Shown piece after piece: positions 9,046 to 35,403 of a DNA stretch of 64,000 bases. The translations under genes and the position numbers were made by a program. Below the pieces are notes generated by a model, which was not told where the DNA came from, did not search any database, and was given only the letters and a program-made list of their open reading frames with translations. The first letter of the stretch is position 1, and every line of letters starts with the position of its first letter. Source of the DNA: Thauera chlorobenzoica (lineage in GTDB: Bacteria > Pseudomonadota > Gammaproteobacteria > Burkholderiales > Rhodocyclaceae); NCBI RefSeq assembly GCF_001922305.1, contig NZ_CP018839.1, positions 1,550,001-1,614,000 of the forward strand, read 5' to 3'.

Positions 9046-9083
9046 AGATTGAATCACTTTGAGATTGGGGGGCTGGATAGACT
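9046..9083 (+). promoter_or_regulatory. Promoter and activator element of the hydroxylase operon
   Basis: AGATTGAATCACTT (9046-9059) is followed 32 bases from its first base by the -10-like TAGACT (9078-9083). Exactly the same 14-mer at exactly the same distance from a TAGAAT lies upstream of the aldehyde dehydrogenase gene (26290-26327). The region lacks a good -35, as expected for an activator-dependent promoter. The predicted start point is about 60 bases before the hydroxylase ATG. Confidence 0.6.
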
Positions 9084-9148
9084 GCCAGGCATCGACAAGG
9101 TCGGCATCGATCGGCTCGACAGACCTGGATTTCAATACAGAGGGGACT

Positions 9149-12100
9149 ATGGCCTTAGCGCAAGTCAAATTCTCGGCACTGCTGTACGGGCTCAAGCATG
9201 TGCTGCAACTGATGGCGCGCCGCCATCCGCATTTCCGGCGCCGTCTCGGCGAGCGCAATCTCACCGTGCAGATGCAGACCGGCGACAACACGGTCGAACG
9301 CCATTTCACCTTCATCAACGGCAAGGTCAGCTCGGCGGCGGGGCGCCACGCTTCGCCCGCGATCACGATCACGGTCGCCAACGCCGAAGTCGGCCTGAAG
9401 CTGTTTGCCCTCAACGTCGATCAGGTCGAGCGGGTCGAGGCGATCAAGAACTTCCAGCTCAAGGCCGACGGCCCCGATGAGCTGGTGGTCTGGTTCACCC
9501 AGACGATGAACATGATCCCGACACTCGGCTGGGAGTACGGCACCGCGCTCGGCAACGGCGTCAAGCGCTATGTGACCAACACCAACGGCGGGCCGCTGTT
9601 CGTCCACGTCAAGGACGACAGGATCGTGCGCATGACGCCGATCGAGTTCGACGACAGTGACGCTCCGACCTGGTCGATCGAGGCGCGCGGCAAGCGCTAC
9701 ACGCCGCCGCGCCAGACCACGGTGGCGCCGCACACGATGTGCTCGAAGTCGACGATCTATTCGCCCAGCCGCCTGCTGTACCCGATGAAGCGGGTCGATT
9801 TCAACCCCGACGGCGAGCGCAACTGCCACAACCGCGGCATTTCGGGCTACGAACGCATCAGCTGGGACGAGGCCTACGACATCGTCGCCAGGGAAATCCA
9901 GCGCGTGAAGCGCGACTTCGGCCCCGGCGCGATCATGGCCAACCACGGCTCCCATCACACCTGGGGCAACGTCGGCTACTACATCAGCGCCGCCTACAAG
10001 TTCTTCAATGCCATCGGCACGACCAAGGTGATGCACAACCCGGACAGCTGGGAAGGCTGGTATTGGGGGGCGATGCACCACTTCGGCCACAGCATGCGGC
10101 TGGGTCAGACCGAGACCTACAGCCTGGTCGAGGACCTGATGAAGGAGGCCGAGATGGTGGTCTTCTGGTCGGCCGACCCGGAAGCGACCAGCGGTTCCTA
10201 CTCCGCCTTCGAAGGGACTTCGCGGCGCCAGTGGCTCCATGATCTGGGCATCGAGCTGGTGCATGTCGATCCCTATTACAACCACTCCGCGGCGCTGCTC
10301 GGCGGCAAGTGGATCGCCCCCAGGCCCGGCACCGACACCGCGATGGCGATGGCGATCGCGCAGGTGTGGATCGTCGAGGGGCTGTACGACAAGCAGTACG
10401 TCGCCGAGCGCTGCGTCGGCTTCGACACGTGGCGCGACTACCTCCTCGGCAAGGAAGACGGCATCCCCAAGACGCCCGAGTGGCAGGAGTCGGAAACCGG
10501 CGTGCCGGCGCGCGAAGTGCGTGCCCTGGCGCGGCGCTGGGGGAGCAGGAAGACCTACCTGGGCGCGGGCGGCTGGGGCAACGGCCACGGCGGCGCCTGC
10601 CGCTCGGCGACCGGCATCCAGTGGGCGCGCACCCTGGCCTGCCTGCTGGCGATGCAGGGAATGGGCAAGCCCGGGGTCAACTACGGCCTGCTCCAATGGG
10701 GCACCCCGATCGACCTGTCCTTCTCCTTCCCCGGCTATGCCGACGGCGGCATGTCGGGCGATCTCGAAGGCACCGGCCTGGCGATCAGCCTGTACCTGCG
10801 CATGCCGCAGCTGCCTTCGTTCAATCCGGTGACGCAGAAGGTGCCGCGCCTGCGCATTCCCGAGGCGATCCTCGAAGGCAAGGCCGAAGGCTATCCGTGG
10901 GATGGCAAGACGATCGAAGGGCAGTTCCAGAAGTTCAGCTACCCGAAGCCCGGGCACGCCCCCGTGCAGATGCTCTACAAGTACGGCGGGGCGTCGATCG
11001 GGACCATGAACGACTCCAACCGCTACGTCAAAGCCTACCGCACCGACAAGCTGCCCTTCGTCGTGAACCAGTCGATCTGGCTCGAGGGCGAGGCCAAGTT
11101 TGCCGACATCCTGCTCCCGGCCTGCTCGTCGTTCGAGCGCTGGGACATCAGCGAATTCGGCGGCACCGGCGGCTATGCGCTCCACGGCCAGACCCAGATG
11201 AACCACCGCGTCATCCTGATGCAGCACAAGTGCATCGAGCCGCTGGGCGAGTCGAAGTCCGACTTCCAGATCTTCACCGAGCTGGCCTCGCGCCTCGGGC
11301 TGGGCACCTACTTCTGCGAAGGCATGACCGAGCTCGACTGGGTGAAGAAGATGTTCGACGCCTCCGACCTGCCCAAGCACATCAGCTGGAAGGAATTCCT
11401 CAAGAAAGGCTACTTCGTCGTTCCGCCGCTGCCCGAAGAGCGGCGCGACCCGCCCTCGCTGCGCTGGTTCTACGAAGGCCGGAAGAAGGACGCGCCCGAG
11501 CCGCACCCGCTGCCCGGCGACTATACGGAAAAATTCCAGGAAGGCCTGCAGACCCAGTCGGGCAAGTTCGAGTTCGAGTGCTCGAGCCTGAAGCGCTTCG
11601 ACCCGGACGACCCCGAGCGCCCGCCGATCGTCAAGTACGTGCCGTCCTGGGAAGGCCCGCGCTGCGCGCAGTACCGGCGCTACCCGCTGCAGATGATCTC
11701 GCCGCACTCGCGCTTCAGCTACCACACCATGAGCGACGGCAAGGAGAGCGCGGTCAATGACATCAAGGAGCACCGCGTCCTCATCGACGGCTACTACTAC
11801 TGGGTGATGCGGATCAACAGCGAGGACGCCGCCGCGCGCGGCATCCGGATGCACGACCTGATGCGGGTCTACAACGACCGCGGCGCGGTGATCTGCGCCG
11901 CCCATGTGACCCCGCGCCTGCCGCGGGGAGTGGTGCATTCGTACGAGTCCTCGGCGGTCTATGACCCCCTCGGCGAGCCCGGCTATTCGGTCGATCGCGG
12001 CGGCTGCGTCAATCAGCTCACGCCGAAACGCTCGATCGCGAAGAAGGTGACCGGCACCGCGGCCAACTCCTGCCTGGTCGAAATCGAGTTGTGGGATGGC

Positions 12101-12157
12101 AGCGCGGAGCTCAAGCGTGCGCCGGGGCAGGGCGAGGAAATGGAGGCGCAGCCGTGA
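9149..12157 (+). CDS. Molybdopterin hydroxylase large subunit, transhydroxylase/resorcinol-hydroxylase type
   Basis: This 1002-residue protein belongs to the DMSO-reductase superfamily branch of pyrogallol-phloroglucinol transhydroxylase. It probably adds a water-derived hydroxyl to a dihydroxylated ring (3,5-dihydroxybenzoate or resorcinol), giving a hydroxyhydroquinone-type product. The GSHHTWGN segment (His269/270) and NPDSWEG (Asp299-Ser300) match the catalytic His, Asp and Mo-ligand Ser of transhydroxylase. No N-terminal CxxC iron-sulfur motif is seen, also as in transhydroxylase. Residues 1-120 are an extra N-terminal domain that looks like an SCP2 sterol-carrier fold, which the 875-residue Pelobacter enzyme lacks. 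The start (AGGGG five bases upstream) replaces a longer open frame. It overlaps the small-subunit gene. Confidence 0.85.
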
Positions 12158-13020
12158 AAAAGTGGAACCTGGTGATCGACGTGGCGAAGTGCTTCAACTG
12201 CAACTGCTGCGCCCTGGCCTGTCATGACGAGTATCACGGCAACAGCTTCCCCGGCTATGCGGCCGAGATGGCCAAGCTCGGCCAGCGCTGGATCGACATC
12301 CTGCAGCGCGAGACCGGGCAGGTGCCGATGGTCGAAGTGAGCTACCTGCCGGTGATGTGCAACCACTGCGACAACCCGCCCTGCCTGAAGGCGGCGAAGG
12401 ACGGTGCGGTGGTCAAGCGCGACGACGGCATCGTCCTCATCGTTCCGGAGAAGGCGCGCGGCCAGCGCCAAATCGTCGATGCCTGCCCCTACAACGCGGT
12501 GTTCTGGAACGAAGAGAAGCAGCTGCCGCAGGCCTGGCCGTTCGATGCCCACCTGCTCGACCAGGGGTGGACGCGGACCCGCGGTGCGCAGGTATGCCCG
12601 ACCCAGGCGATGCGCACCCTGAAGGTGAGCGACGAGGAAATGCGCGCCATCGTCGCGCGCGAGGGGCTCGAAGTGCTGTCGCCCGAGACCGGCGCCAAGC
12701 CGCGGGTGCATTACCAGAATCTCGCCAATTTTTATTCCGTTTTCATCGGCGGGGCGCTGACCCGGGAGCTGGCCGGGGTCAGCGAATGCGCGGCCGGGGT
12801 GAAGGTCGCCCTGTTCAAGCACAACCAGCTGGTCGAGGAGCAGGAAAGCGACACGTTCGGGGAGTTCCGTTTCCGCCGCCTGAAGCGCGACAGCGGGACC
12901 TACACCGTGCGCGTGGCCGAGGCGAAGTTCGCCATGGAAGTGGAAGTGAAGCAGGACAGCGTCTATCTGGGCGCGATCGATCTGGCACCGGCGCGCAAGC
13001 CGGCGCCGGCAACCAACTAA
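12154..13020 (+). CDS. Hydroxylase small subunit, ferredoxin-type with C-terminal beta-barrel domain
   Basis: This 288-residue protein is the electron-transfer partner of the preceding Mo subunit. It starts with GTG overlapping the upstream stop (GTGA). Cysteine clusters C13-x2-C16-x2-C19-x3-C23, [19 protein letters not shown] and AQVCPTQAM give ligands for about three 4Fe-4S clusters. The last 90 residues (from about [12 protein letters not shown]) form a carboxypeptidase-regulatory/CNA-B-like beta domain, exactly the layout of the transhydroxylase beta subunit. Neither subunit has a Tat signal, so the enzyme should be cytoplasmic or attached to the inner face of the membrane. Confidence 0.88.
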
Positions 13021-13035: not shown

Positions 13036-13449
13036 GTGGCCTACATTTTCCACCAGGACGAACTGCCCAAGCTCGTCTCGACCGTGCCCGGGCGCGAGCG
13101 GGTGTTCTTCGTCAGCAAGGAACTCAGCGACGTCGACCACATGCTCGCCGGGATCATGCGCTACCAGCAGGGGGCGAAGTCGCCCTACCACTTCCACAAG
13201 AACTGCGAACACTTCTATTTCATCATGGAAGGGCGCGCCACGGTGGAGACGCCCGAAGGCGTGCGCGACGTCGCCCCCGGCGACATGGTGTTCATCCCGG
13301 CCGAGGAAAAGCACCGCCTGCGCGCCGTCGATCCGCTGTTCTACTTCGAATTCCAGGCCCCGAACCGTTTCCAGACCACGATCCTGGACGGCACACCCGA
13401 CGACCTGCTGTGGGAAAAGGTCGACGGCAAGATCTGGGTGCAGAGCTGA
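13036..13449 (+). CDS. Cupin-domain protein 1 of the hydroxylase operon
   Basis: A single-domain cupin of 137 residues starting at GTG after AAGGAGG. A full metal site is visible: His52, His54, Glu58 (or His59) in HFHKNCEHFYFIMEG and His93 in EEKHRLRA. It follows the small subunit by 15 bases and is clearly in the same operon. Auxiliary proteins in the related T. aromatica AR-1 cluster have been proposed to stabilise intermediates; the same role is my inference here. A metal-dependent isomerase or dioxygenase-like activity cannot be excluded. Confidence 0.75.
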   Translation: MAYIFHQDELPKLVSTVPGRERVFFVSKELSDVDHMLAGIMRYQQGAKSPYHFHKNCEHFYFIMEGRATVETPEGVRDVAPGDMVFIPAEEKHRLRAVDPLFYFEFQAPNRFQTTILDGTPDDLLWEKVDGKIWVQS

Positions 13450-13844: not shown

Positions 13845-14726
13845 ATGAAGGTAGCTCTGGTCGGCCTGGGGCGGATGGGCGCGGCGATCGCCGGGCGCAT
13901 CCTGGAGGGAGGTTTCGATCTGGTCGTCCATAACCGCAGCACGGAGAAGGCTGCCGGGCTCGCCGAGGCCGGCGCGCGGGTGGCCGGATCGGTGGCCGAA
14001 GCCTGTGCCGGTCGTGACGTCGTCATCACCATGGTGGCCGACGATGGCGCGCTCGGGGCGGTCGCCTATGGCGCCGGCGGGTTGTGCGCGTCGCTGCCGG
14101 CGGGCGCCGTCCATCTGGTGATGGGCACCCACGGCGTCGCTGCCCTCGGTGCGCTGGAAGAGGCCCACCGCCGGGCCGGCCAGCAGCTGGTGGCGGCGCC
14201 GGTGCTGGGCCGCCCGGACGCCGCTGCCGCCGGCGAGCTCGGCATCGTCGCGGCGGGGCCGGCCGATGCGGTGGCGCGCTGCCGGCCGCTGTTCGAGCTC
14301 ATCGGCCGGCGCGTGTTCGCCGCCGGGGAGCGTCCCGCGGGCGCCGCGGTGATCAAGCTTTCGAACAATTTTCTGCTGGGGTCCTGCATCGAGGCGATGG
14401 GCGAGGCGTTCGCCCTCGCCCGCAAGTACGAAGTCGCGCCCGAAGTGCTTTACGACGTGCTCACCGAAGGTCTGTTCGCCGCTCCGGCGTACAAGGTCTA
14501 TGGCCGCCTGATCGCCGACGAGGCCTACGAGCCGGCCGGCTTCGCCGCCCATCTCGGCCTCAAGGACGCCACCCTGGTGCTCGCCGCCGGGGAGGCGGCG
14601 CGGGTGCCGCTGCCGAGCGCGAACACGCTCCGCGACCGCCTGCTGAGCGCCATCGCCCACGGTGACGGCGACAAGGACTGGTCGGTGATGGCCCGCGAGC
14701 AGGCCCGTGCGAGCGGGCTCGAGTGA
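13845..14726 (+). CDS. NAD(P)-dependent dehydrogenase, 3-hydroxyisobutyrate dehydrogenase family
   Basis: The 293-residue product has the N-terminal Rossmann motif GLGRMGAAIA (residues 7-16) and the catalytic-lysine helix IKLSNNFLLGS of beta-hydroxyacid dehydrogenases. It may oxidise or reduce a hydroxy- or oxo-acid formed downstream of ring cleavage, such as a malate-semialdehyde-level C4 compound. That assignment rests on operon position only. It lies 30 bases after cupin 2 with GGAGG near its start. Confidence 0.85.
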   Translation: MKVALVGLGRMGAAIAGRILEGGFDLVVHNRSTEKAAGLAEAGARVAGSVAEACAGRDVVITMVADDGALGAVAYGAGGLCASLPAGAVHLVMGTHGVAALGALEEAHRRAGQQLVAAPVLGRPDAAAAGELGIVAAGPADAVARCRPLFELIGRRVFAAGERPAGAAVIKLSNNFLLGSCIEAMGEAFALARKYEVAPEVLYDVLTEGLFAAPAYKVYGRLIADEAYEPAGFAAHLGLKDATLVLAAGEAARVPLPSANTLRDRLLSAIAHGDGDKDWSVMAREQARASGLE

Positions 14727-14828: not shown

Positions 14829-16082
14829 ATGAAATACAACCGCCCGCATGCAACCGCGCCCTGGGGCACCATGGCCAAGGACTGGGAGCACGGCATCGAC
14901 TATCCACGCATGGTGCGCGAGCGTTTCCAGCGCGCCCAGCATGCGGTCAAGGCGGCCGGGCTGGGGGCCGTGCTGTGCTTCAACGTCGATAACGTGCGCT
15001 ATGTCACCGGCACCCACATCGGCGAGTGGGTGCGCGACAAGTTCGACCGCTACTGCCTGTGCCCGCGCGACGGCCAGCCCTACCTGTGGGACCCGGCGCC
15101 GCCGGCGAAGCGGATCAGCTCGCCGTGGATCGCCGAGCACCTGGCCGCACCGATCAGCACCCTGCAGGGGGCGCTGCCGCCCGGCGTCGGCGCCGAGCAG
15201 GCGTTCGCCCGCCAGATCAGGAAGATGCTGGTGCATTACGGCATCGAACGCGAGCCGCTCGGCATCGACCTGCTCGAGCTGCCGATGCTGCGCGCGCTGG
15301 AAAAGGAAGGGATCGAGGTGGTCGATGGCCAGCAGGCCATGCTCGACGCGCGCGAGATCAAGACCGCGCAGGAGATCGAGTGCCTGAAGGTGGCCGCGGC
15401 CATGGTGGACGCCACCTACTACGACATCTGCAAGGCGATCCGGCCGGGGGTGCGCGAGAACGAGCTGGTGGCGATCGCCAACGACCGCCTGTTCCGCCTC
15501 GGCTCGGAGCGCGTCGAGTGCGTCAATTCGGTCGCCGGGCCGCGCGGCACGCCGCATTCGCACACCTTCTCCGACCGCATCATCCAGCCGGGCGACATGG
15601 TCTATCTGGACATCATGCATTCGTTCAACGGCTACCGGACCTGCTACTACCGCACCTTCGTGTGCGGGGAGCCGAACAAGCACCAGATCGAAGCCTACGA
15701 GACCGCCTCGAAGTGGATCAGCGCCTCGATCGATGCGATCCGCCCGGGAGCGACGGTGGAAGAGGTCGCCAGCGTGTGGCCGGCGGCCGAGGAGTTCGGC
15801 TACCACGACGAGGACGAGGCCTTCCTGCTGCAGTACGGCCACGGCATCGGCCTGAGCCTGTGGGAGCGGCCGATCATCAGCCGGCGCTTCAGCGGGCAGA
15901 GCACGGTGCTCAAGGAAGGCATGGTGTTCGCCGTCGAGACCTGGAAGGGCGCCGCCGACGGCTCGGGCGCGGCGCGCATCGAGGAGGAAGTGGTGGTGAC
16001 GAAGGATGGCTGCGAAGTGATCACCAACTTCCCGTCGGACCGGCTGATTTCCTGCGGCCTGCCGGGGTGCGACGTGTTTTGA
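14829..16082 (+). CDS. M24 (pita-bread) family protein with an altered metal site
   Basis: This 417-residue protein has the two-domain layout of Xaa-Pro dipeptidase/creatinase proteins: an N-terminal creatinase-like domain to about residue 180, then the pita-bread domain. Metal ligands Asp261, His338 (GHGIGL), Glu370 and Glu385 (RIEEEV) are in place, but the second aspartate of the usual D-x10-D pair is Cys272 (GYRTCYYRTF). This argues against ordinary peptidase action and for a one-metal or changed C-N/C-O lyase-type activity. It lies between pathway dehydrogenase and TRAP genes. Its substrate could be a ring-cleavage product or an aromatic conjugate; this is unproven. Confidence 0.8.
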   Translation: MKYNRPHATAPWGTMAKDWEHGIDYPRMVRERFQRAQHAVKAAGLGAVLCFNVDNVRYVTGTHIGEWVRDKFDRYCLCPRDGQPYLWDPAPPAKRISSPWIAEHLAAPISTLQGALPPGVGAEQAFARQIRKMLVHYGIEREPLGIDLLELPMLRALEKEGIEVVDGQQAMLDAREIKTAQEIECLKVAAAMVDATYYDICKAIRPGVRENELVAIANDRLFRLGSERVECVNSVAGPRGTPHSHTFSDRIIQPGDMVYLDIMHSFNGYRTCYYRTFVCGEPNKHQIEAYETASKWISASIDAIRPGATVEEVASVWPAAEEFGYHDEDEAFLLQYGHGIGLSLWERPIISRRFSGQSTVLKEGMVFAVETWKGAADGSGAARIEEEVVVTKDGCEVITNFPSDRLISCGLPGCDVF

Positions 16083-16184
16083 ATGCTTATCCGGCGCTGC
16101 AGGCGGAACAATAATTTTCACGCCGCCCGCTCGCCTCTTCATCGGCCGCCTGAACGCGGCCATCCGCACGACAAGGAGGAGAAC

Positions 16185-17150
16185 ATGGATCTTTCCAGCC
16201 GTTTTGCCAGACTGGCCGCCATCCTGGCGTTTGCCGCAGCGGGCTTCGCTGCACCGGTGCACGCCGAGGAGTGGCGCTTCAGCACGCCCACCCCGGCAGC
16301 GCACATCTACACCAGGACGGCCGAGCGCATCGCCCAGGCGATCGGCGCCGAAGGCAAGGACCGGGTGACGGTCGCCCCCGCCAACCAGCTCGGCGACGTG
16401 CCCACCGTGCTGTCCCTGCTGCAGGGCGGCGCGCTCCAGCTCGCGGTGATCCCGGTCGGCGACCTGACCAACCGCGACCCGGCGTTCTTCGGCTGGTTCC
16501 TGCCGCGCAAGTTCGATTCGCTCGAAGGCGCGGCGAAGGCGGCCCACTCGAAGGAAGCGCTGGAAATGCTCGACCGCCTCGGGAAGCAGGGCCTGGTCGG
16601 CCTGGCCTACGTCCTCAACGGCCAGCGCCACGTCCTTTCCCGCAAGCCGATCGCTTCGGTCGAGGATTTCCGCAACCTCAAGGTCCGCGCCTTCCAGAGC
16701 GACATCTTCCGCGCCTGGTGGAGCGCGCTCGGTGCGGCGCCGACCGCGCTGCCGCTGCCCGAGATCATGCCTTCGCTGATCACCGGGGTGATCGATGCGG
16801 TGGACGTGGATCTCGAGATCGTCAATGCGTTGCGCATGTACGAGCAGGCGCCGCACGTGACGCTGACCCGGCACATGGTGTTCCCCGGGGTGATCCTGGC
16901 GTCGCGGACGTGGTGGGAGCGGCTCGACCCGGCGCGCCAGGAAAAAGTCCGTGCCGTGATCGCCGAGGCGCAGCAGTGGGCGCTCGACGACGTGGTCGCC
17001 GACGAGGCGGCGCTGGTCGAGCGCCTGGCCAAGGCGGGGGCCAAGGTGGCGCAGTTCGATGGCGCGCAGTTCTCGGCCCAGGTCGAGACGGTGCGCAGGC
17101 AGTTCATCGACCGCGATCCGCTGATCCGGGCATTCGATCAGGCGAACTGA
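16185..17150 (+). CDS. dctP: TRAP transporter solute-binding protein (DctPQM set)
   Basis: A 321-residue periplasmic receptor with signal peptide MDLSSRFARLAAILAFAAAG...HA (cleavage about residue 27). It starts after AAGGAGG at 16185. It carries DctP features such as SVEDFRNLKVRAFQS with the substrate-binding arginine, and EIMPSLITGVIDAVD. It differs clearly from the three orphan receptors and is followed by its own DctQ and DctM genes. In T. aromatica AR-1 a TRAP system is needed for efficient growth on 3,5-dihydroxybenzoate; this set is the obvious equivalent. Confidence 0.92.
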   Translation: MDLSSRFARLAAILAFAAAGFAAPVHAEEWRFSTPTPAAHIYTRTAERIAQAIGAEGKDRVTVAPANQLGDVPTVLSLLQGGALQLAVIPVGDLTNRDPAFFGWFLPRKFDSLEGAAKAAHSKEALEMLDRLGKQGLVGLAYVLNGQRHVLSRKPIASVEDFRNLKVRAFQSDIFRAWWSALGAAPTALPLPEIMPSLITGVIDAVDVDLEIVNALRMYEQAPHVTLTRHMVFPGVILASRTWWERLDPARQEKVRAVIAEAQQWALDDVVADEAALVERLAKAGAKVAQFDGAQFSAQVETVRRQFIDRDPLIRAFDQAN

Positions 17151-17713: not shown

Positions 17714-17717
17714 AGCG

Positions 17718-18992: not shown

Positions 18993-19020
18993 GGCGGCGC
19001 GGAAAATCTACTGCGCCGCC
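18993..19020. terminator. Bidirectional hairpin between convergent dctM and dctP
   Basis: GGCGGCGC (18993-19000) and GCGCCGCC (19013-19020) form a perfect 8-bp stem whose right arm lies inside the last codons of the minus-strand dctP. The loop reads AAAATCTA on the plus strand. It probably limits read-through from both sides, though neither side has a strong T run. Confidence 0.45.
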
Positions 19021-26005: not shown

Positions 26006-26067
26006 GCGGAGATTAAACGCCCGACTCACCGCAAAGGCAAGCTTTTCTCCGCGTCATATGCGGAGAA
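26006..26067 (-). promoter_or_regulatory. Putative fic autoregulatory operator
   Basis: TTCTCCGC (26045-26052), N7, GCGGAGAA (26060-26067) is a perfect 8-bp dyad. A third half-site, GCGGAGATT, begins at 26006 immediately upstream of the fic ATG. The helix-turn-helix of the Fic protein itself is the most likely ligand. Confidence 0.6.
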
Positions 26068-26393: not shown

Positions 26394-27893
26394 ATGAACG
26401 ACCTGGCTTTCTCCGGCCTTGAACTGACCGACCCGGGCCTGCTGCGCCAACGCTGCCATGTCGATGGCGCGTGGGTGGCGGCCGACGGCGGGGCGACGCT
26501 GGCGGTGTTCGATCCCGCAACCGGGGCCTGCCTGGGCAGCGTTCCCGATCTGGGGGCGGCCGAGACCCGGCGTGCGATCGAGGCCGCCGGTGCCGCCTTT
26601 CCGCGGTGGCAGGCGAAGCTGGCGAAGGAGCGCAGCGCGATCCTGCGGCGCTGGTTCGAGCTGATCCTCGCCCACCAGGAAGACCTGGCGCGGATCATGA
26701 CCGCCGAGCAGGGCAAGCCGCTGGCCGAGGCGCGCGGCGAGATCGCCTACGCAGCATCGTTCATCGAATGGTTCGCCGAGGAGGCCAAGCGCACCTACGG
26801 CGACACCATCCCGACCTACCAGGCCGACAAGCGCCTCGTCACCATCAGGCAGCCGGTCGGGGTGTGCGCCGCGGTCACGCCGTGGAACTTCCCCGCGGCG
26901 ATGATCACGCGCAAGGCCGGCCCCGCGCTCGCCGCCGGATGCACGATGATCGTCAAGCCGGCGAGCGCGACCCCCTATTCGGCGCTCGCGCTCGCCGAGC
27001 TGGCCGCGCGCGTGGGGGTGCCGAAAGGGGTGTTCAACGTCCTCACCGGCTCGGCGACCCGGATCGTCGGCGAGCTGACGGCGAGCCCGGTGGTGCGCAA
27101 GCTCACCTTCACCGGCTCGACCGAGATCGGCAAGGTGCTGATGCGCCAGTGCGCGGACACGGTCAAGAAGGTGTCGCTGGAGCTGGGCGGCAACGCCCCC
27201 TTCATCGTCTTCGAGGATGCCGACCTCGATGCGGCGGTCGATGGGGCGATGCTGTCGAAGTACCGCAACAGCGGACAGACCTGCGTGTGCACCAACCGCC
27301 TGCTCGTCCAGCGCAAGGTCTATGACGACTTCGCCGCCCGCCTCAAGGAACGGGTGGAGACGCTGAAGGTCGGCAACGGTTTCGAGGCCGGTGTCACCCA
27401 GGGACCGCTGATCGACGCCGGTGCCGTGCGCAAGGTCGAGGAACACATCGCGGACGCCGTCGCCAAGGGCGCGAAGGTGCTCACCGGCGGGCGCCGCCTC
27501 TCCGCAGAAGGGCTGTTCTTTCCGCCCACCGTACTCACCGGGGTGACGCCCGAGATGAAGGTGGCGAGCGAGGAAACCTTCGGCCCGCTGGCGCCGCTGT
27601 TCGTCTTCGACGACGAGGCCGAGGCGATCCGCCTCGCCAACGACACCGAGTACGGGCTCGCCGCCTATTTCTACACCCGCGATCTGGGGCGCGCCTGGCG
27701 CGTGGCTGAAGCGCTCGAGTACGGCATGGTCGGCATCAACACCGGCCACATCTCCACCGAGGTGGCGCCGTTCGGCGGCATCAAAGCGTCGGGGATCGGG
27801 CGCGAGGGCTCGCGCTACGGCATCGACGAATACACCGAGATCAAGTATCTGGCGATGGGCGGGATCGGCGCTTGCAACGCGGTTCCGGCGTGA
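26394..27893 (+). CDS. gabD: NAD(P)+ aldehyde dehydrogenase, succinate-semialdehyde dehydrogenase type
   Basis: A 499-residue ALDH with the general base Glu263 (LELGGNAPF) and nucleophile Cys297 (SGQTCVCTNR). The second cysteine, Cys299, two residues on, is characteristic of the SSADH/GabD branch, where the pair can form a regulatory disulfide. It leads the operon that continues with the GTPase, E1, VOC, E2 and LysR genes. In this setting it may oxidise a C4 semialdehyde released from the ring-cleavage product rather than succinate semialdehyde itself. That step is my inference. Confidence 0.9.
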   Translation: MNDLAFSGLELTDPGLLRQRCHVDGAWVAADGGATLAVFDPATGACLGSVPDLGAAETRRAIEAAGAAFPRWQAKLAKERSAILRRWFELILAHQEDLARIMTAEQGKPLAEARGEIAYAASFIEWFAEEAKRTYGDTIPTYQADKRLVTIRQPVGVCAAVTPWNFPAAMITRKAGPALAAGCTMIVKPASATPYSALALAELAARVGVPKGVFNVLTGSATRIVGELTASPVVRKLTFTGSTEIGKVLMRQCADTVKKVSLELGGNAPFIVFEDADLDAAVDGAMLSKYRNSGQTCVCTNRLLVQRKVYDDFAARLKERVETLKVGNGFEAGVTQGPLIDAGAVRKVEEHIADAVAKGAKVLTGGRRLSAEGLFFPPTVLTGVTPEMKVASEETFGPLAPLFVFDDEAEAIRLANDTEYGLAAYFYTRDLGRAWRVAEALEYGMVGINTGHISTEVAPFGGIKASGIGREGSRYGIDEYTEIKYLAMGGIGACNAVPA

Positions 27894-27982
27894 GGCGAGG
27901 GCCGTACGGCCTGATCCGGGGAAGCAAAAAACATGAAATACGGCGCAAACGAAGTGCGCCGCCAGTGGCCGGGGGAGGCGCC

Positions 27983-29044
<1,062 letters not shown>

Positions 29045-29111
29045 GCTCCGGATCGAACCGACGCCGTATCGCGCCGCCGTGTGCCGGCGGCTGTCGCTGA
29101 AAGGAACAGAA

Positions 29112-31319
29112 ATGCCACTCATCAACGATCTTCGCTACGACGCTCCCTGGCAGGAGGTCATCGCCACCGCCGACGACTGGGACCACCTGGGGCCGGCCAC
29201 CGTGCTGCGGATGCTGCACCACCTGCACCTGGTGCGCGTCTTCGAGGAAACCGTGCTCGAACTCGACGGCGAAGGGCTGGTCCATGGCCCCGCCCACTCC
29301 AGCATCGGCCAGGACGGCGGCGCGGTGGGCGCGGTGTCGCTGCTGCGCTCGTCCGACCTGATCACCGGCTCGCACCGCGGCCACCACCAGTTCCTCGCCA
29401 AGGGCCTCGCCCATCTCGATCAAGGCGAGGCCGACCCGCGGCGTACGCCGCTGTCCGAGGGGGTCAGGACCATGCTCTACCGTGCGCTCGCCGAGATCCT
29501 CGGCCTTGCCGACGGTTACTGCCGGGGGCGGGGCGGTTCGATGCACCTGCGCTGGGCCGAGGCCGGCGCGCTCGGCACCAACGCCATCGTCGGCGGCGGC
29601 GTGCCGCTGGCCACCGGTGCGGCGTGGGCGTGCAAGCGGCGTGGCGCGGGGGACGTGGCGTTCACCTTCCTCGGCGACGGGGCGGTCAATATCGGCGCGG
29701 TGCCCGAGTCGATGAACCTGGCCGCGCTGTGGTCGCTGCCGGTGTGCTTCTTCATCGAGAACAACGGCTACGCGGTGTCGACCCGGCTGAGCGAAGAAAC
29801 GCGCGAGACGCGGCTGTCCTCGCGCGGCGGCGCCTACGGCATTGCGGCGCTGCGCGTGGACGGGATGGATCCGGTGGCGGTGCGCGTGGCCACGCAGCGG
29901 GCGGTGGATGCGATGCGCGCCGGGCAGGGGCCGTACATCATCGAGGCCGAGGTGTATCGCTACTTCCACCACGGTGGCGGCCTGCCGGGCAGCGCCTTCG
30001 GCTACCGGAGCAAGGAGGAGGAGGCCGCCTGGCGCGCGCGCGACCCCTTGGCCTGCCTGGCCAGAGGCATGATCGAGCGCGACTGGCTGAGCGCCGACGA
30101 GGATGCGGCGCTGCGCGCAGGGGCGCGCGCCTGCATGGCTGAAATCGTCGCCCGGCTCACCGAAAAGGACGGCGCCAAGCGCCGCATCGTCCCTGCGCTG
30201 TGGCCCCAGGCCACGTTCCGCGACGAGGGCGTGCGCGGTGATCTGGCCGAACTCGCCGGCGTCCGCTGCGAGGAACTGGAAACTGCGAGCGGCAAGGTGG
30301 GCGAGGTCAAGTTCATCAGCGCGGTGGCCGGGGTGATGGCGCGGCGGATGGAATGCGACGAGCGCATCTTCTGTCTCGGCGAGGACATCCACAAGCTCAA
30401 CGGCGGCACCAACGGCGCGACCCGCGGGCTGGCAGCGCGCTTTCCGGACCGCATCGTGCCGACCCCGATCGCCGAGCAGGGCTTCGTCGGGCTGGCCGGC
30501 GGGGTGGCGATGGAAGGCCATTACCGCCCGGTGGTCGAGCTGATGTATGCCGATTTCGCCCTCGTCGCCGCCGACCCGCTGTTCAACCAGATCGGCAAGG
30601 CGCGCCATATGTTCGGCGGCGACATGGCGGTGCCGCTGGTGCTGCGCAGCAAGTGTGCGATCGGCACCGGCTACGGCTCCCAGCATTCGATGGACCCCGC
30701 CGGCCTGTATGCGATGTGGCCCGGGTGGCGGATCGTCGCGCCGTCGACGCCGTTCGACTATGTCGGCCTGATGAACAGTGCCCTCCAGTGCGACGACCCG
30801 GTGCTGGTGATCGAGCACGTCGGCCTGTACAACACCACCGCCCCCGGCCCGCTGGAGGATTTCGACTACCACATTCCGCTCGGCAAGGCGAAGGTGGTCC
30901 GCCCCGGCAAAGCATTTACCGTGCTGACCTACCTGGCGATGACGCCGCTCGCGGTGAAGGTCGCCGACGAACTCGGCGTCGACGCCGAAGTGATCGACCT
31001 GCGCTCGCTCGATCGCGCCGGCATCGACTGGGAGACGATCGGCGACAGCGTGCGCAAGACCAACAACGTGGTCGTCCTCGAACAGGGCTCGCAGACCGCG
31101 TCCTACGGCGCGCTGCTCGCCGACGAGGTGCAGCGCCGGCTGTTCGACCACCTCGACCAGCCGGTCAAGCGCATCCACGGCGGCGAGGCGGCGCCGAACG
31201 TTTCCAAGGTGCTCGAGCGCGCGGCCTTCGTTGGTGCCGAGGAGGTGCGTGCCGGCTTCATCGAGGTGATGGCCGACGCTGACCATCCGCTGCCGCCCGG
31301 CGGGCAGCGCCCGGACTGA
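29112..31319 (+). CDS. Fused alpha-beta E1 of a 2-oxoacid-dehydrogenase-like complex, candidate hydroxybenzoquinone-cleaving enzyme
   Basis: The 735-residue protein joins the E1-alpha domain (about 1-350) and E1-beta domain (about 400-735), which are separate in most acetoin, pyruvate and branched-chain complexes. The thiamine-diphosphate motif runs from Gly188-Asp189-Gly190 to Asn217-Asn218. The beta part has ERIFCLGEDI and the TPIAEQGFVGLAGG segment. In A. anaerobius and T. aromatica AR-1, hydroxybenzoquinone is cleaved to acetate and malate by gene products of this family, and this is the natural counterpart. E1 would perform the C-C cleavage with transfer of an acyl group to E2. AAGGA lies 7 bases before the start. 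Confidence 0.88.
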   Translation: MPLINDLRYDAPWQEVIATADDWDHLGPATVLRMLHHLHLVRVFEETVLELDGEGLVHGPAHSSIGQDGGAVGAVSLLRSSDLITGSHRGHHQFLAKGLAHLDQGEADPRRTPLSEGVRTMLYRALAEILGLADGYCRGRGGSMHLRWAEAGALGTNAIVGGGVPLATGAAWACKRRGAGDVAFTFLGDGAVNIGAVPESMNLAALWSLPVCFFIENNGYAVSTRLSEETRETRLSSRGGAYGIAALRVDGMDPVAVRVATQRAVDAMRAGQGPYIIEAEVYRYFHHGGGLPGSAFGYRSKEEEAAWRARDPLACLARGMIERDWLSADEDAALRAGARACMAEIVARLTEKDGAKRRIVPALWPQATFRDEGVRGDLAELAGVRCEELETASGKVGEVKFISAVAGVMARRMECDERIFCLGEDIHKLNGGTNGATRGLAARFPDRIVPTPIAEQGFVGLAGGVAMEGHYRPVVELMYADFALVAADPLFNQIGKARHMFGGDMAVPLVLRSKCAIGTGYGSQHSMDPAGLYAMWPGWRIVAPSTPFDYVGLMNSALQCDDPVLVIEHVGLYNTTAPGPLEDFDYHIPLGKAKVVRPGKAFTVLTYLAMTPLAVKVADELGVDAEVIDLRSLDRAGIDWETIGDSVRKTNNVVVLEQGSQTASYGALLADEVQRRLFDHLDQPVKRIHGGEAAPNVSKVLERAAFVGAEEVRAGFIEVMADADHPLPPGGQRPD

Positions 31320-31331: not shown

Positions 31332-31880
31332 ATGTCTTCGAATCCGCAAACCGCAGGACTGCCCGGGCTGCGCGGCACCGACCACATCGGCTTCACCGTG
31401 CCGGATCTGGACGAGGCGGTGGATTTCTTCGTCGGGGTGATCGGCTGCGAGCCGTTCTACGAGCTGGGGCCGTTCGCTGCCGACGACGACTGGATGGCCA
31501 CCCACCTCGACGTGCACCCGCGCGCGGTGATGAAGCGGCTGAAGTTCCTGCGCTGCCGGCACGGGTCCAATTTCGAGCTGTTCGAATACGACGCCCCCGG
31601 GCAGAACCGCCGGCAACCGAGGAACAGCGACGTCGGCGGCCATCATCTCGCCTTTTACGTGGACGACATCGATGCCGCGCTCGCCCACCTGCGCGCCCAT
31701 GGCGTGCGCATCCTCGGCGAACCGACGGTGCGCACGAGCGGGCCGAATGCCGGCCAGACCTGGGTCTATTTCCTCGCGCCGTGGGGGATGCAGCTCGAAC
31801 TGGTGAGCTTCCCGGACGGCAAGGGCTATGAACGCGACACCGCGCGGCGGCTGTGGCATCCCGCGCGGCCGGCGCAGTGA
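31332..31880 (+). CDS. VOC-superfamily (glyoxalase/dioxygenase fold) protein
   Basis: This 182-residue protein has two beta-alpha-beta3 repeats. Probable metal ligands are His in TDHIGF, Glu in FELFEY, His in VGGHHLAFYV and Glu in MQLELVSF, a complete 2-His-2-Glu set. It sits between E1 and E2 with short spacers, so it should act on the same metabolites. It could be a lyase, isomerase or epimerase of the quinone or C4 product; extradiol cleavage is unlikely in an anaerobic pathway. Confidence 0.83.
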   Translation: MSSNPQTAGLPGLRGTDHIGFTVPDLDEAVDFFVGVIGCEPFYELGPFAADDDWMATHLDVHPRAVMKRLKFLRCRHGSNFELFEYDAPGQNRRQPRNSDVGGHHLAFYVDDIDAALAHLRAHGVRILGEPTVRTSGPNAGQTWVYFLAPWGMQLELVSFPDGKGYERDTARRLWHPARPAQ

Positions 31881-31911: not shown

Positions 31912-33255
31912 GTGGCCGTTGAAATTCTCATGCCATCGACCGGGGCGTCGATGAGCGAAGGCAGCATCCTGCGCTGGCTCAAGCAGGAAGGTGAAGCGGT
32001 CGAGCGCGGCGAGGCGCTGTTCGAGATCGAGACCGACAAGGCGGTGGCCGAGGCGCCCGCCCCGGCGTGCGGCATTCTCGGCAGAATCCTGGCGGCCGGA
32101 GGCAGTGAAGGCATCAAGGTAGACAGCGTGGTCGGGCTGATCGCCGTCGACGGCGAGGACCCGGCGACCCTGGCCGCGGCCGTGCCGGCCGGTGCGACGC
32201 CGGTGGGCTCGGCACCGGCGGCCAGTCCGGCGGCAGCCGCTCCGGCACCGGCTGCCGCGGCCACCGCCGCGGGCGAAGCGTCGCCGGCCGCTGCGCACGG
32301 GCGGATTCCGGCCAGCCCGCTGGCACGGCGACTGGCCCGCGAAACGGGCGTCGATCTGAGCGTCGTGCGCGGCCGTGGGCCGCATGGCCGGGTGTTGCGC
32401 GCCGACGTCGAAAGCGCTGCGCGGCAGGCCGCCGAGGTGCTGGTGCCGTCTGCCGCGTTGGCGCCGGGCAGGACTGCGCCGCTGCCGGCGGCTACGGTGG
32501 CCGCAGCGGGAACGGCAGCACCCTCAGCGGCCGGCGCCGCCTTCGAGGACATTCCGCATTCGGCGATGCGGCGGGTGATCGCCCAGCGCCTGGGGGAAGC
32601 CAAGCGCACCGTGCCGCACTTCTACCTCAGCCTCGATTGCACGGTCGATGCGCTGCTCGCCTTGCGTGCGCAGCTCAACGCCCAACTCGACGCCCAACTC
32701 GACGCCCAGGTTGGCGCCCACCCCGGCGGCGGCAAGCTGTCGGTCAACGATTTCATCGTCAAGGCGGTGGCGCTCGCCCTGCGGCGCGTGCCCGGGTGCA
32801 ATGCGGCATGGACAGAGGCGGCGATCCGCCGCTTCGCCGAGGTCGACGTCGCGGTCGCGGTGGCGACGCCGGGCGGGCTGATCACCCCCATCGTGCGCCA
32901 TGCCGATGACAAGAGCCTGGGCACTCTCTCCGCCGAGCTCAGGGCGCTCGCCGGTCGCGCCCGGGAAGGGCGGCTGAAGCCCGAGGAGTACCAGGGCGGC
33001 GGGTTCACCGTCTCCAATCTGGGCATGTACGGCATCCGCGAGTTCGCCGCGATCATCAACCCGCCGCAGGCCTGCATCCTCGCCGTGGGCGCCTGCGAGC
33101 CGCGCCCGGTGGTGCGCGACGGCAGCCTCGCGGTGGCGACCCTGATGAGCTGCACCCTGTCGGTCGACCATCGCGTGGTCGATGGTGCCCTGGCGGCGGA
33201 ATTTCTGGCGGAATTCCGCCGCCTGATCGAAAATCCGCTCGCGATCCTGGTGTAG
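31912..33255 (+). CDS. Dihydrolipoamide acyltransferase, E2 of the ring-cleavage complex
   Basis: This 447-residue E2 starts at GTG (31912). Layout: one lipoyl domain (residues 1-80, lipoyl-lysine in ETDKAVAE), an Ala/Pro-rich linker, a peripheral-subunit-binding domain (RIPASPLARRLARETGVDL), a second Ala-rich linker, then the catalytic domain with DHRVVDGA near the C-terminus. The catalytic domain contains a short repeated AQLDAQLDAQ segment (bases 32671-32718). It accepts the acyl unit from E1 and passes it to CoA. The E3 partner is at 23457. Confidence 0.92.
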   Translation: MAVEILMPSTGASMSEGSILRWLKQEGEAVERGEALFEIETDKAVAEAPAPACGILGRILAAGGSEGIKVDSVVGLIAVDGEDPATLAAAVPAGATPVGSAPAASPAAAAPAPAAAATAAGEASPAAAHGRIPASPLARRLARETGVDLSVVRGRGPHGRVLRADVESAARQAAEVLVPSAALAPGRTAPLPAATVAAAGTAAPSAAGAAFEDIPHSAMRRVIAQRLGEAKRTVPHFYLSLDCTVDALLALRAQLNAQLDAQLDAQVGAHPGGGKLSVNDFIVKAVALALRRVPGCNAAWTEAAIRRFAEVDVAVAVATPGGLITPIVRHADDKSLGTLSAELRALAGRAREGRLKPEEYQGGGFTVSNLGMYGIREFAAIINPPQACILAVGACEPRPVVRDGSLAVATLMSCTLSVDHRVVDGALAAEFLAEFRRLIENPLAILV

Positions 33256-33265: not shown

Positions 33266-33298
33266 CACCGCGCTCCGGCGGCATGCCGGCGCGCGGTG
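33266..33298 (+). terminator. Hairpin between E2 and the LysR gene
   Basis: CACCGCGCTCCGGC (33266-33279) and GCCGGCGCGCGGTG (33285-33298) pair at 13 of 14 positions around a 5-base loop, with no T run. It may reduce read-through into the regulator gene or stabilise the upstream message. Confidence 0.5.
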
Positions 33299-33346
33299 CC
33301 GGGGACGCCCGCGCATGCCGACAAGGGAATCAGGAAATTTTCCAGG

Positions 33347-34261
33347 ATGAAGCTGAGCCAGCTGCAACATTTGATCGCGGTCGCCGAAGCGGGCACCGTC
33401 CGCCAGGCCGCGAAGGTGCTGTTCCTGTCGCAGTCGTCGGTGACGAAGAGCATCCACCAGCTCGAGGAGTCGTTGGGCGTCGAGCTGTTCCACCGCGGTT
33501 CCCATGGGGTCACCCCCACCGCCGCCGGGCGTGCCCTGATCGCTCGCGCCAAGGTCGTCGAGGCCGAGTTGCGCGAGGCCCGCAACGACATCGATTCGAT
33601 CGTGGGGGCGGGTACCGGCGACCTCAGGATCAGCATCTCGCCGACCGTCTCCGTCGGTCTGGCGCCGCAGGCGGTGATCGAATTCAAGCGCTCGCGGCCG
33701 CGGGTCTCGGTCCAGATCCAGGAGGGCGTCTATCCCGACGTGCTGCAGTCGGTGCGCACCGGCGACATCGATTTCGCGATTTGCCTGATGCCCGAGCGGC
33801 CGCGCGACGAGGGGCTGTCCTGCGAGCTGCTGCTGCCCGACCGGGTGACGCCGGCGGTGCGTGCGAGTCACCCGCTGGCTTCGTCGCGGAAGAAGCTGGT
33901 AGACCTGGTTAATGCCGACTGGGTGATCTACCGCCTCGGCCGCAGCGGGCGCGACGTCTTCGAGCAGACCTTCCTCGCTTCGGGGCTCAAGCCGCCTTCG
34001 AGCACTATCGACTGCGCCTCGTTTGCCGCCACCCTGACCCTGGTCGAGCGCGGCGACTACATCACCCTGGTGCCGAAGCGGCTGTTCGCCGACAAGGCCG
34101 CGCGCTGGGGGATCGTGCCCCTCGTCATGGAGTCGCCGATGCCGGCATGGAACATCGCGGTGTTTTACCGTGCGGAGCACGAGCTGTCGCCGGTGTGCCT
34201 GGCCTTCCTGCACGAACTGCGGGCTGCCGCCACCGACATCCTGACCCGCCAGTCGGGTTGA
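33347..34261 (+). CDS. LysR-family regulator, candidate master regulator of the catabolic island
   Basis: A 304-residue LysR protein with a helix-turn-helix at residues 1-60 (VRQAAKVLFLSQSSVTKSIHQLEE) and an effector domain after about residue 90. It is the only LysR gene inside the island and lies at the end of the ALDH-E1-E2 operon. In T. aromatica AR-1 the LysR regulator DbdR controls several operons of the equivalent pathway, and this gene is positioned to do the same through the AAGATT elements. The start at 33347 follows CAGGA closely; an upstream in-frame start adds 17 residues unlike LysR proteins. Confidence 0.88.
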   Translation: MKLSQLQHLIAVAEAGTVRQAAKVLFLSQSSVTKSIHQLEESLGVELFHRGSHGVTPTAAGRALIARAKVVEAELREARNDIDSIVGAGTGDLRISISPTVSVGLAPQAVIEFKRSRPRVSVQIQEGVYPDVLQSVRTGDIDFAICLMPERPRDEGLSCELLLPDRVTPAVRASHPLASSRKKLVDLVNADWVIYRLGRSGRDVFEQTFLASGLKPPSSTIDCASFAATLTLVERGDYITLVPKRLFADKAARWGIVPLVMESPMPAWNIAVFYRAEHELSPVCLAFLHELRAAATDILTRQSG

Positions 34262-34395
34262 AGCAGGGCTGCTCGCCTGGTCGCGGGCAATTCGATATCG
34301 GGCGGGATTGATCGCTTGTATCGATCGGCGCTGAATGCGGCGTGCCGTCTGTTATGTTGCTGCCAAGACAGACGCATCTTCGGGGATGAGCGGTG

Positions 34396-35403
34396 ATGAG
34401 CGGAAAAAACAGTGAGGAGGCCGCCGCGGTCGCGGTGCGGCTGGTCGAACAAGCCGCCGATGCCGCGTCGCTGCGGCCGGTAATCACGCCCCAGCCCTAT
34501 CCCCGCCTCGGCCACGGACACTGCATCGTCGAGGTCAGGAGCGCCGGGGTCAATCCAAGCGACGCGAAGGCCGCGCTCGGGCTGATGCCGCATGCGGTGT
34601 GGCCACGGACGCCGGGTCGCGACTACGCGGGCGTCATCGTCGGCGGCTCTTCCCACCTGGTCGGCATGGAAGTGTGGGGCAGCGGCGGGGATCTCGGCAT
34701 CGTGCGCGACGGCAGCCACGCCCGCTATCTGGTGATCGACACCGCCGCGGTCAGCATCAAGCCGGCTGCGCTGAGCATGCGCGAAGCCGGCGCTGTCGGT
34801 GTGCCGTTCGTCACCGCCTACGAAGGCCTGCGGCGGGCCGGGTTGCCGGTCGCGGGGGAAGTCGTGCTGGTGATGGGCGGCAACGGCAAGGTCGGCCAGG
34901 CCGCGATCCAGCTCGCCGCCCAGCGCGGCGCCCGCGTGTTCGCGGTCAACCGCCGCGGCGAAGCGTATGCCGGCCACGCCTGCGCACCGGTCGAGCTGAT
35001 CGATGCCGAGCGCGGCGATATCGCCGGGCAGGTACGCGAGCGCACCGCCGGGCGGGGCGCCGACATCGTCTTCAACACCGTGGGCAGCCCCTATTTCGCC
35101 GCCGCCAATCAGGCAATGGCGCCCGGCGCACGCCAGATCCTGATCTCGACCCTCGACCGCGCCGTGCCCTTCGACATCTTCCAGTTCTACCGCGGTCGAC
35201 ACACCTACGTTGGCATCGACTCGCTCGCCCTCGACAGCATTGCCTGTGCGCGCATCCTCGACGAACTGGCCCCGGGCTTCGCCGCCGGAACGCTTGCGCC
35301 CTTCACGACGCCGCCGGATGCCGTCTATCCGCGCGAGCGCGCCGCCGATGCCTACCGGGCGGTGCTCGGCGGGGCACGTCAACGGCTGGTGCTCGAGGGG
35401 TGA
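34396..35403 (+). CDS. MDR-superfamily quinone oxidoreductase-like protein
   Basis: A 335-residue zinc-free medium-chain dehydrogenase/reductase. The GroES-like N-terminal half contains VRSAGVNPSDAKAALG, and the nucleotide motif is VMGGNGKVGQAAIQLAAQRGA (NADPH type). The AR-1 pathway was reported to include an additional cytoplasmic quinone oxidoreductase acting on hydroxyhydroquinone; this gene, beside the regulator, is a good match. It would interconvert hydroxyhydroquinone and hydroxybenzoquinone or detoxify quinones. It begins 134 bases after the LysR stop, so it may have its own promoter. Confidence 0.82.
   Translation: MSGKNSEEAAAVAVRLVEQAADAASLRPVITPQPYPRLGHGHCIVEVRSAGVNPSDAKAALGLMPHAVWPRTPGRDYAGVIVGGSSHLVGMEVWGSGGDLGIVRDGSHARYLVIDTAAVSIKPAALSMREAGAVGVPFVTAYEGLRRAGLPVAGEVVLVMGGNGKVGQAAIQLAAQRGARVFAVNRRGEAYAGHACAPVELIDAERGDIAGQVRERTAGRGADIVFNTVGSPYFAAANQAMAPGARQILISTLDRAVPFDIFQFYRGRHTYVGIDSLALDSIACARILDELAPGFAAGTLAPFTTPPDAVYPRERAADAYRAVLGGARQRLVLEG

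What the first reader, a model, noticed from the sequence alone, without database searches (positions are those of the whole stretch)
9046..35403. Apparently complete oxidative anaerobic dihydroxybenzene pathway in one island
The Mo hydroxylase pair, a Mo oxidoreductase, dedicated E1/E2/E3, a TRAP transporter, cupins, a LysR regulator and a quinone oxidoreductase match the gene types described for resorcinol in A. anaerobius and 3,5-dihydroxybenzoate in T. aromatica AR-1. Gene order here includes features I cannot place in those clusters from memory: the M24 protein, the hydroxyacid-type dehydrogenase, the Fic insertion and the extra orphan DctP. The actual substrate (resorcinol, alpha-resorcylate or another) is open.
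Basis: partly seen in the sequence, partly recalled or inferred. Interest (0 to 1): 0.75.

Follow-up and report, generated by a model that had tools for sequence, protein, structure and literature searches.

The report
Anaerobic dihydroxybenzoate breakdown gene island
A bacterium carries one gene island that very probably lets it break down a dihydroxylated benzoic acid without oxygen by first oxidising the ring; this type of pathway is already known, but the island points to two enzymes in it whose jobs are still unproven.

Summary
The region encodes an AhtL/RehL-type molybdenum hydroxylase pair, a second Mo enzyme (Mop2), fused E1 plus E2 and E3, a TRAP importer, a metal cupin, LysR regulators and a quinone-reductase-like protein. 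The hydroxylase is 57% identical to the LuFRes1 one and falls in a different clade. Mop2, nearest to acetylene hydratase, accompanies that clade in 25 of 30 genomes and other AhtL clades in 1 of 16 examined; neither RehL-type genome shows it. The eLife 2020 paper says a catechol-dehydroxylase homologue lies in the Thauera aromatica 3,5-dihydroxybenzoate operon and that its loss impairs growth on that compound. The island therefore looks AR-1-like; 3,5-dihydroxybenzoate is the likeliest substrate. AR-1 sequences could not be compared. Most interesting leftover: the M24 protein, best conserved of nine products compared with LuFRes1, with an Asp-to-Cys change in its metal site, often near E1: a candidate ring-opening enzyme. 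New member of a known kind.

The parts
6676..7602 (-). LysR1, divergent from DctP1; membership of the pathway unproven
   Evidence: Pfam; hits in relatives at 25-34% identity, in loci that also hit LysR2
7761..8789 (+). DctP1, TRAP solute-binding protein
   Evidence: Pfam; homologues 40-47% in AhtL loci L008, L071, L028; nearest solved chains 5im2, 5i5p
9059..12157 (+). AhtL/RehL-type Mo hydroxylase large subunit (likely start 9149); N-terminal ~140 aa possibly SCP2-like
   Evidence: Pfam AhtL-like, 1019 bits to 4v4c, tree, weak SCP2 matches
12091..13020 (+). AhtS, Fe-S small subunit (likely start 12154)
   Evidence: Pfam Fer4_11, 53% to LuFRes1
13036..13449 (+). cupin with complete H-x-H, E, H metal motif; candidate decarboxylase
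13845..14726 (+). 3-hydroxyisobutyrate-dehydrogenase-family protein
14829..16082 (+). M24-family protein, site D261 C272 H338 E370 E385; candidate ring-opening enzyme
16083..17150 (+). DctP2
17222..17713 (+). DctQ
   Evidence: Pfam DctQ 3.8e-19
17679..18989 (+). DctM
19008..20042 (-). DctP3, 46% identical to DctP1
20141..20854 (-). alpha/beta hydrolase, membership unproven
   Evidence: Pfam Abhydrolase_6 7.7e-15; no homologue in compared loci
21000..23390 (+). Mop2, acetylene-hydratase/catechol-dehydroxylase-like Mo enzyme (true start probably later than 21000)
23421..24860 (+). E3 dihydrolipoyl dehydrogenase
24875..26029 (-). Fic/DUF4172 protein, insertion, probably not pathway
   Evidence: no homologue in compared loci
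26394..27893 (+). ALDH, succinate-semialdehyde dehydrogenase family
   Evidence: 71% to LuFRes1
27872..29044 (+). CobW-family GTPase (metal chaperone type)
   Evidence: a CobW homologue within 100 bp of M24 in 7 genomes
29001..31319 (+). fused E1 of a 2-oxoacid-dehydrogenase-type complex (likely start 29112)
   Evidence: 74% to LuFRes1
31332..31880 (+). glyoxalase-fold (VOC) protein
   Evidence: 74% to LuFRes1
31912..33255 (+). E2 acyltransferase
   Evidence: 54% to LuFRes1
33296..34261 (+). LysR2, homologues 54-69% in AhtL/Mop2 loci
34393..35403 (+). zinc-type quinone oxidoreductase-like protein (PIG3 type)
   Evidence: one weak hit (31%) in the compared loci

Best explanation
The island encodes an AR-1-type oxidative hydroxyhydroquinone (HHQ) pathway, most likely for 3,5-dihydroxybenzoate. 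TRAP proteins import the acid (inferred). AhtLS, a Mo enzyme with Ser-ligated Mo, adds a hydroxyl from water (by family homology) giving 2,3,5-trihydroxybenzoate; the metal cupin may decarboxylate it to HHQ (inferred). HHQ is oxidised to hydroxybenzoquinone by an enzyme I cannot assign. Ring opening and oxidation to acetate and malate units use the fused E1/E2/E3 (by homology to the LuFRes1 set) with the M24 protein as likely ring-opening or hydrating enzyme (inferred). By my own balance, hydroxybenzoquinone + 4 H2O gives malate + acetate + 2[H], one NAD-linked oxidation, which fits one E1/E2/E3; the products are recalled. Mop2 acts on a catecholic intermediate specific to the acid branch (inferred). 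LysR2 regulates (inferred). Electrons can go to nitrate: a narG gene is in the genome (shown).
For: Gene content. Ten gene types shared with LuFRes1: AhtL 57, AhtS 53, E1 74, E2 54, E3 65, VOC 74, M24 93, ALDH 71, CobW 42, HIBADH family 35 percent. Hydroxylase clade distinct from the RehL one: 32 rows, SH-aLRT 100, in an 87-row quick tree. Mop2 at 69% or more in 25 of 30 window-type genomes and 1 of 16 other AhtL genomes examined, none in the two RehL-type genomes; within 2 kb of AhtL in 15 named loci and within 6.7 kb in 2 more. Cupin in 16 of 28 window-type genomes and 0 of 2 RehL-type. PMC7028382 section 11: a catechol-dehydroxylase homologue lies in the T. aromatica 3,5-DHB operon and its loss impairs growth on 3,5-DHB. 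E1, M24 and cupin co-occur over 41 genomes (Fisher 6e-6 to 1e-3, kinship ignored). NarG 1904 bits.
Against: No AR-1 sequence could be compared; the AR-1 and A. anaerobius gene papers were not held. TRAP is not discriminating: a DctM gene also lies in the RehL-type Pollutimonas locus, and DctM or DctP homologues in 13 more loci of other AhtL types. The quinone oxidoreductase has one weak hit (31%) in the compared loci, though those reach only about 10 kb either side. Eight window-type genomes have AhtL (6 of them Mop2) but no E1, M24-A or cupin, so AhtL plus Mop2 can stand without this lower pathway, or the MAGs are incomplete. Fused E1 at 60-62% occurs in 5 genomes of the order sample with no AhtL match. 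The gene order is broken by Fic and by the minus-strand DctP3/hydrolase pair. The AhtL pocket residues are not exclusive to the clade.
Confidence: 0.66

Rival explanations
1. The island degrades gallate or pyrogallol: Mop2 removes the middle hydroxyl (gallate to 3,5-dihydroxybenzoate, pyrogallol to resorcinol) and AhtLS then hydroxylates the product into the HHQ pathway, a redox-neutral pair.
For: Mop2 is closest to acetylene hydratase among solved enzymes, and catechol dehydroxylases are the relatives of acetylene hydratase; the JACS 2025 abstract says such enzymes remove para-hydroxyls from catechols (abstract start). Mop2 sits near AhtLS, in 6 genomes without E1, M24-A and cupin.
Against: AR-1 grows poorly on 3,5-DHB itself when the homologue is missing, so it is not only an entry enzyme. 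I noticed no gallate-specific gene among the genes scanned. Closeness to Dadh or Cldh was not testable here.
Confidence: 0.18
2. It is a resorcinol pathway like that of A. anaerobius LuFRes1.
For: Ten shared gene types, E1 74% and M24 93% identical. TRAP genes do not exclude it (a DctM lies in a RehL-type locus).
Against: Hydroxylase 57% identical and in another clade; LysR, cupin and Mop2 in place of two sigma-54 activators. At two positions that line the AthL pocket (recalled) the window has His and Thr, LuFRes1 Phe and Cys.
Confidence: 0.11
3. A composite or decaying island without one working pathway.
For: Fic insertion, minus-strand genes, three DctP for one DctQM, sporadic presence: 0 of 12 other genomes of the family in the sample have AhtL, Mop2, M24 or E1 at the cut-offs used.
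Against: The core frames are open, with high third-position GC, and M24, cupin and hydroxylase sites are conserved.
Confidence: 0.04

Closest known systems
Thauera aromatica AR-1 3,5-dihydroxybenzoate cluster (Molina-Fuentes 2015; DbdR paper 2019)
   Same: Catechol-dehydroxylase homologue in the operon (PMC7028382); from recalled abstracts only: TRAP transporter, LysR regulator DbdR, extra quinone oxidoreductase, HHQ intermediate
   Different: Could not be compared gene by gene; Fic, extra DctP genes and the alpha/beta hydrolase cannot be placed
Aromatoleum (Azoarcus) anaerobium LuFRes1 resorcinol region (contig fetched here)
   Same: AhtLS, E1/E2/E3, VOC, M24, ALDH, CobW, HIBADH-family
   Different: Two sigma-54 activators, OYE, GST, MFS, porin; no Mop2, cupin, TRAP or LysR match in the 35.6 kb read, no Mop2 or cupin genome-wide at the cut-offs used; hydroxylase in another clade
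Pyrogallol-phloroglucinol transhydroxylase of Pelobacter acidigallici (4v4c)
   Same: Large subunit aligned over nearly its whole length; Mo-ligand Ser, His, Asp, Tyr kept (residue roles recalled)
   Different: Lacks the N-terminal domain of about 140 residues; different pathway
Acetylene hydratase (2e7z) and gut catechol dehydroxylases
   Same: Mop2's best solved relative, 364 bits against 243 for the next; Cys Mo/W ligand aligned
   Different: Catalytic Asp13 of acetylene hydratase (recalled) is His in Mop2; no dehydroxylase sequence was compared

Membership tests
AR-1-type 3,5-DHB oxidative HHQ pathway | AhtL/DbhL-type Mo hydroxylase with Fe-S subunit | tested here: met
AR-1-type 3,5-DHB oxidative HHQ pathway | Catechol-dehydroxylase-like Mo enzyme in the operon | tested here: met
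   Mop2 nearest to acetylene hydratase among solved enzymes; feature taken from PMC7028382. Direct comparison with dehydroxylases not made
AR-1-type 3,5-DHB oxidative HHQ pathway | TRAP transporter and LysR regulator (features recalled from abstracts) | tested here: met
   TRAP is weak evidence since a DctM also lies in a RehL-type locus
AR-1-type 3,5-DHB oxidative HHQ pathway | Pathway-specific quinone oxidoreductase (recalled) | tested here: inconclusive
   one is present but is not conserved in the compared loci
AR-1-type 3,5-DHB oxidative HHQ pathway | Orthology of each gene to AR-1 sequences | not testable with these tools
   papers not held; no AR-1 record identified
AR-1-type 3,5-DHB oxidative HHQ pathway | Growth on 3,5-DHB with nitrate | not testable with these tools
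   narG present, no physiology
A. anaerobius-type resorcinol pathway | Hydroxylase in the RehL clade | tested here: not met
   57% identity, separate clades
A. anaerobius-type resorcinol pathway | E1/E2/E3 and M24 homologues | tested here: met
A. anaerobius-type resorcinol pathway | Paired sigma-54 activators | tested here: not met
   two in LuFRes1 (Pfam; 94% alike); none among the window genes scanned
M24 metallopeptidase | Asp-Asp-His-Glu-Glu metal site | tested here: not met
   second Asp is Cys; 27 of 28 distinct aligned rows read D-C-H-E-E, one row is truncated
Acetylene hydratase | Active-site Asp13 (recalled) | tested here: not met
   His in Mop2

The most novel reading that the evidence does not exclude
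The M24-family protein is the unrecognised ring-opening enzyme of the oxidative HHQ pathway: a pita-bread fold with a Cys-substituted metal site, loaded by the CobW GTPase, hydrolyses or hydrates hydroxybenzoquinone to the 2-oxo acid that E1 takes, and the same M24 plus E1/E2/E3 pairing occurs in other bacteria. In addition AhtLS and Mop2 form a two-molybdoenzyme pair that adds one ring hydroxyl and removes another on the carboxylated intermediate.
Probability: 0.27. Interest if true: 0.68.

Novelty: new member of a known kind. Interest (0 to 1): 0.42.

Why it matters
It adds an AR-1-like cluster on a 3.7 Mb contig with all the main gene types in one stretch, and lets two open points be tested: which enzyme opens hydroxybenzoquinone without oxygen, and what the catechol-dehydroxylase-like enzyme does in a pathway that oxidises rather than reduces the ring. 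The co-occurrence data argue that the latter works on the acid branch and not on HHQ, because both RehL-type genomes, which should also pass through HHQ, show none (2 genomes only, one of them resorcinol-type by homology alone).

Tried and rejected
Considered and rejected: resorcinol as the substrate (clade and gene content); Mop2 as an acetylene hydratase (Asp13 replaced by His); M24 as a housekeeping peptidase (Cys in the metal site, pathway linkage); recent transfer as the main cause of the 93% M24 identity (four-fold sites 63% identical, only slightly above the 47-60% of the eight other genes compared); E1 alone as a marker. M24-B (46-51%) as a pathway marker was dropped because it occurs in 31 of 399 order genomes, 28 of them without an AhtL match.

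Led nowhere: look-ups of Darley 2007, Molina-Fuentes 2015 and the DbdR paper; PDB codes in papers for the DctP1 relatives; paper searches for the HHQ pathway beyond PMC7028382; a paper search on aromatic-acid TRAP proteins. AlphaFold was asked for eight times and the machine was busy each time, so there is no model of the SCP2-like domain or of DctP1. A plasmid search gave eight relatives, none above 61% identity.

Rows dropped before counts: L081, L083 and L091 from the AhtL set (copies of L088 or the window); L121, L130, L131 (same genes as L092, L094, L096) from the tree; G439 and G396 from the E1/M24/cupin table because they were not in the handle lists; G050 left out of the Mop2 count because its hydroxylase is identical to that of G023. 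L028 and L093 in the tree are one identical gene. Only 46 AhtL genomes were examined for Mop2, of 257 candidate places found (80 kept). In the 399-genome searches only the best two first-look candidates per genome were scored (four for M24), so absences there are soft.
Full report
What is there. The window lies in a 3.74 Mb single-contig genome. Pfam scans give, in order: LysR1, DctP1, AhtL, AhtS, cupin, HIBADH-family, M24, DctP2, DctQ, DctM, DctP3 and an alpha/beta hydrolase on the minus strand, Mop2, E3, Fic (minus strand), ALDH, CobW, fused E1, VOC, E2, LysR2, quinone oxidoreductase.

Comparison with LuFRes1. A collection scan with the hydroxylase found 257 relatives and kept 80 loci; one is Aromatoleum anaerobium LuFRes1, plasmid contig. 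That this is the A. anaerobius resorcinol strain is recalled. I read 35.6 kb of the 115.6 kb contig. Shared: AhtL 57%, AhtS 53%, E1 74%, E2 54%, E3 65%, VOC 74%, M24 93%, ALDH 71%, CobW 42%, and a HIBADH-family protein 35%. No match in that stretch at E 1e-10: TRAP genes, cupin, Fic, LysR, quinone oxidoreductase; Mop2 hit only the hydroxylase there at 25%. LuFRes1 has instead two sigma-54 activators, an OYE-type protein, GST, MFS and a porin. E1, VOC, ALDH and M24 (71-93%) are better conserved than the hydroxylase (57%); E2 and CobW are not.

Which hydroxylase type. In an 87-row tree the window sits in a 32-row clade (SH-aLRT 100, quick method, no bootstrap); LuFRes1 and Pollutimonas fall in another. 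The rows keep the Mo-ligand Ser and the His, Asp and Tyr named in the AthL work wherever that part was read (residue roles recalled). The window has His and Thr where LuFRes1 has Phe and Cys at two pocket positions, but His also occurs outside the clade (L057, L058, L062, L066, L077).

Mop2. Its best solved relative is acetylene hydratase (364 bits; thiosulfate reductase 243). In 399 order genomes it passes E 1e-120 in 3, each with a window-type AhtL (about 1 kb away in two, 9 kb in the window); the 3 other AhtL genomes have no match. Over the AhtL genomes examined it is present at 69% or more in 25 of 30 window-type and 1 of 16 others (Fisher 4e-7, kinship ignored). In 17 named loci it lies on the same stretch as AhtL, within 2 kb in 15. 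LuFRes1 and Pollutimonas have none at E 1e-100. PMC7028382 section 11 says catechol dehydroxylases are closest to acetylene hydratase, that a homologue lies in the T. aromatica 3,5-DHB operon, and that strains lacking it grow poorly on 3,5-DHB. This is the main ground for calling the island AR-1-like. Since HHQ should also be formed from resorcinol, absence of Mop2 there suggests that its substrate is on the acid branch; two genomes are a thin basis.

Cupin. It is found in 16 of 28 window-type genomes, 0 of 2 RehL-type, and in G030. It lies within 250 bp of AhtS in 11 other genomes and about 1 kb away in 4. The metal motif is invariant in the homologues of 72% or more. The 3,5-DHB route needs a decarboxylation that the resorcinol route does not; the cupin is a candidate (inference).

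M24. It is the best conserved of the nine products compared with LuFRes1 at codon level; four-fold sites are 63% identical against 47-60% in the other eight, so selection explains more of it than recent transfer. The metal site reads Asp-Cys-His-Glu-Glu in 27 of 28 distinct aligned rows, the last being truncated. The closest NCBIfam model is DMSP lyase DddP, 120 bits against a cut-off of 600, so the fold hosts non-peptidase chemistry elsewhere. M24-A (62% or more) occurs in 24 of 41 tabulated genomes (window and LuFRes1 counted); on the stretches read it lies within 4 kb of an E1 in 13 of them, including three with split E1 of 34-41% from Deltaproteobacteria and Dehalococcoidia records, and within 100 bp of CobW in 7. 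In the window M24 and E1 are 13 kb apart. A second type, M24-B, shares the Cys and lay next to E1 genes in the five stretches read (L125 repeats L097), but occurs in 31 of 399 order genomes, 28 without an AhtL match, so it belongs to something wider.

Completeness and limits. No gene can be assigned to HHQ dehydrogenase. The quinone oxidoreductase has one weak hit in the compared loci. Eight window-type genomes lack E1, M24-A and cupin matches. Many relatives are MAGs, so absences are soft. A narG gene is present in the window's genome. The island is sporadic: none of the 12 other genomes of the same family in the order sample has AhtL, Mop2, M24 or E1 at the cut-offs used.

Transport. DctP1 and DctP3 are 46% alike, and DctP1-like proteins sit in other AhtL loci. 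DctP1's nearest solved chains are 5im2 and 5i5p; I recall these as aromatic-acid binders, but no call shows it. TRAP does not separate the branches: DctM or DctP homologues occur in 14 loci of other AhtL types, one of them the RehL-type Pollutimonas locus.

Literature seen. PMC7028382: passages and the whole of section 11. PMC10100899: passages (RhL and PgtL are Ser-ligated MopB enzymes). PMC11887054: start of abstract and passages. The AR-1 and A. anaerobius gene papers and the 2019 survey of the oxidative HHQ pathway were not read; what I say of their content beyond PMC7028382 is recalled. I make no claim that the M24 role is absent from print.

Noticed in passing
window 161-6612: Cas7, Csd1, Cas5d and a Cas3-like helicase (type I-C look) lie directly upstream of the island; the direct repeats found in 1-9000 are weak and scattered, no array seen there.
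   Followed up: partly
window 9149-9583: The N-terminal ~140 residues of the hydroxylase, absent from pyrogallol transhydroxylase, match SCP2 weakly in 5 of 22 members (best E 0.0027) and Alkyl_sulf_C in 2, none in the window's own copy; a lipid-binding domain could explain the recalled membrane association of resorcinol hydroxylase.
   Followed up: partly
L122, L123, L124: A second M24 type with the same Cys in its metal site sits beside split E1 alpha/beta and E2; relatives occur in 31 of 399 genomes of the order, so a wider pathway may use M24 plus a 2-oxoacid dehydrogenase.
   Followed up: partly
L014:245-3618: A second, more distant AhtL/AhtS-like pair (50% and 39% to the window) lies upstream of the AhtL-Mop2 block.
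   Followed up: no
L009:19091-20367: The M24 gene of Magnetospirillum sp. SS-4 reads in two frames (frameshift in gene or assembly).
   Followed up: no
G019, G031, G033, G039: Genomes with 9 to 12 Mop2-family matches at E 1e-100, recalling the many dehydroxylase homologues described for gut Actinobacteria.
   Followed up: no
L008, L015: Window-type AhtL in records labelled Dehalococcoidia (82%) and Bordetella parapertussis (75%), both MAGs; the labels look like binning or naming errors.
   Followed up: no
window 35794-36177: ORF with a ParE-toxin-like match just after the island.
   Followed up: no
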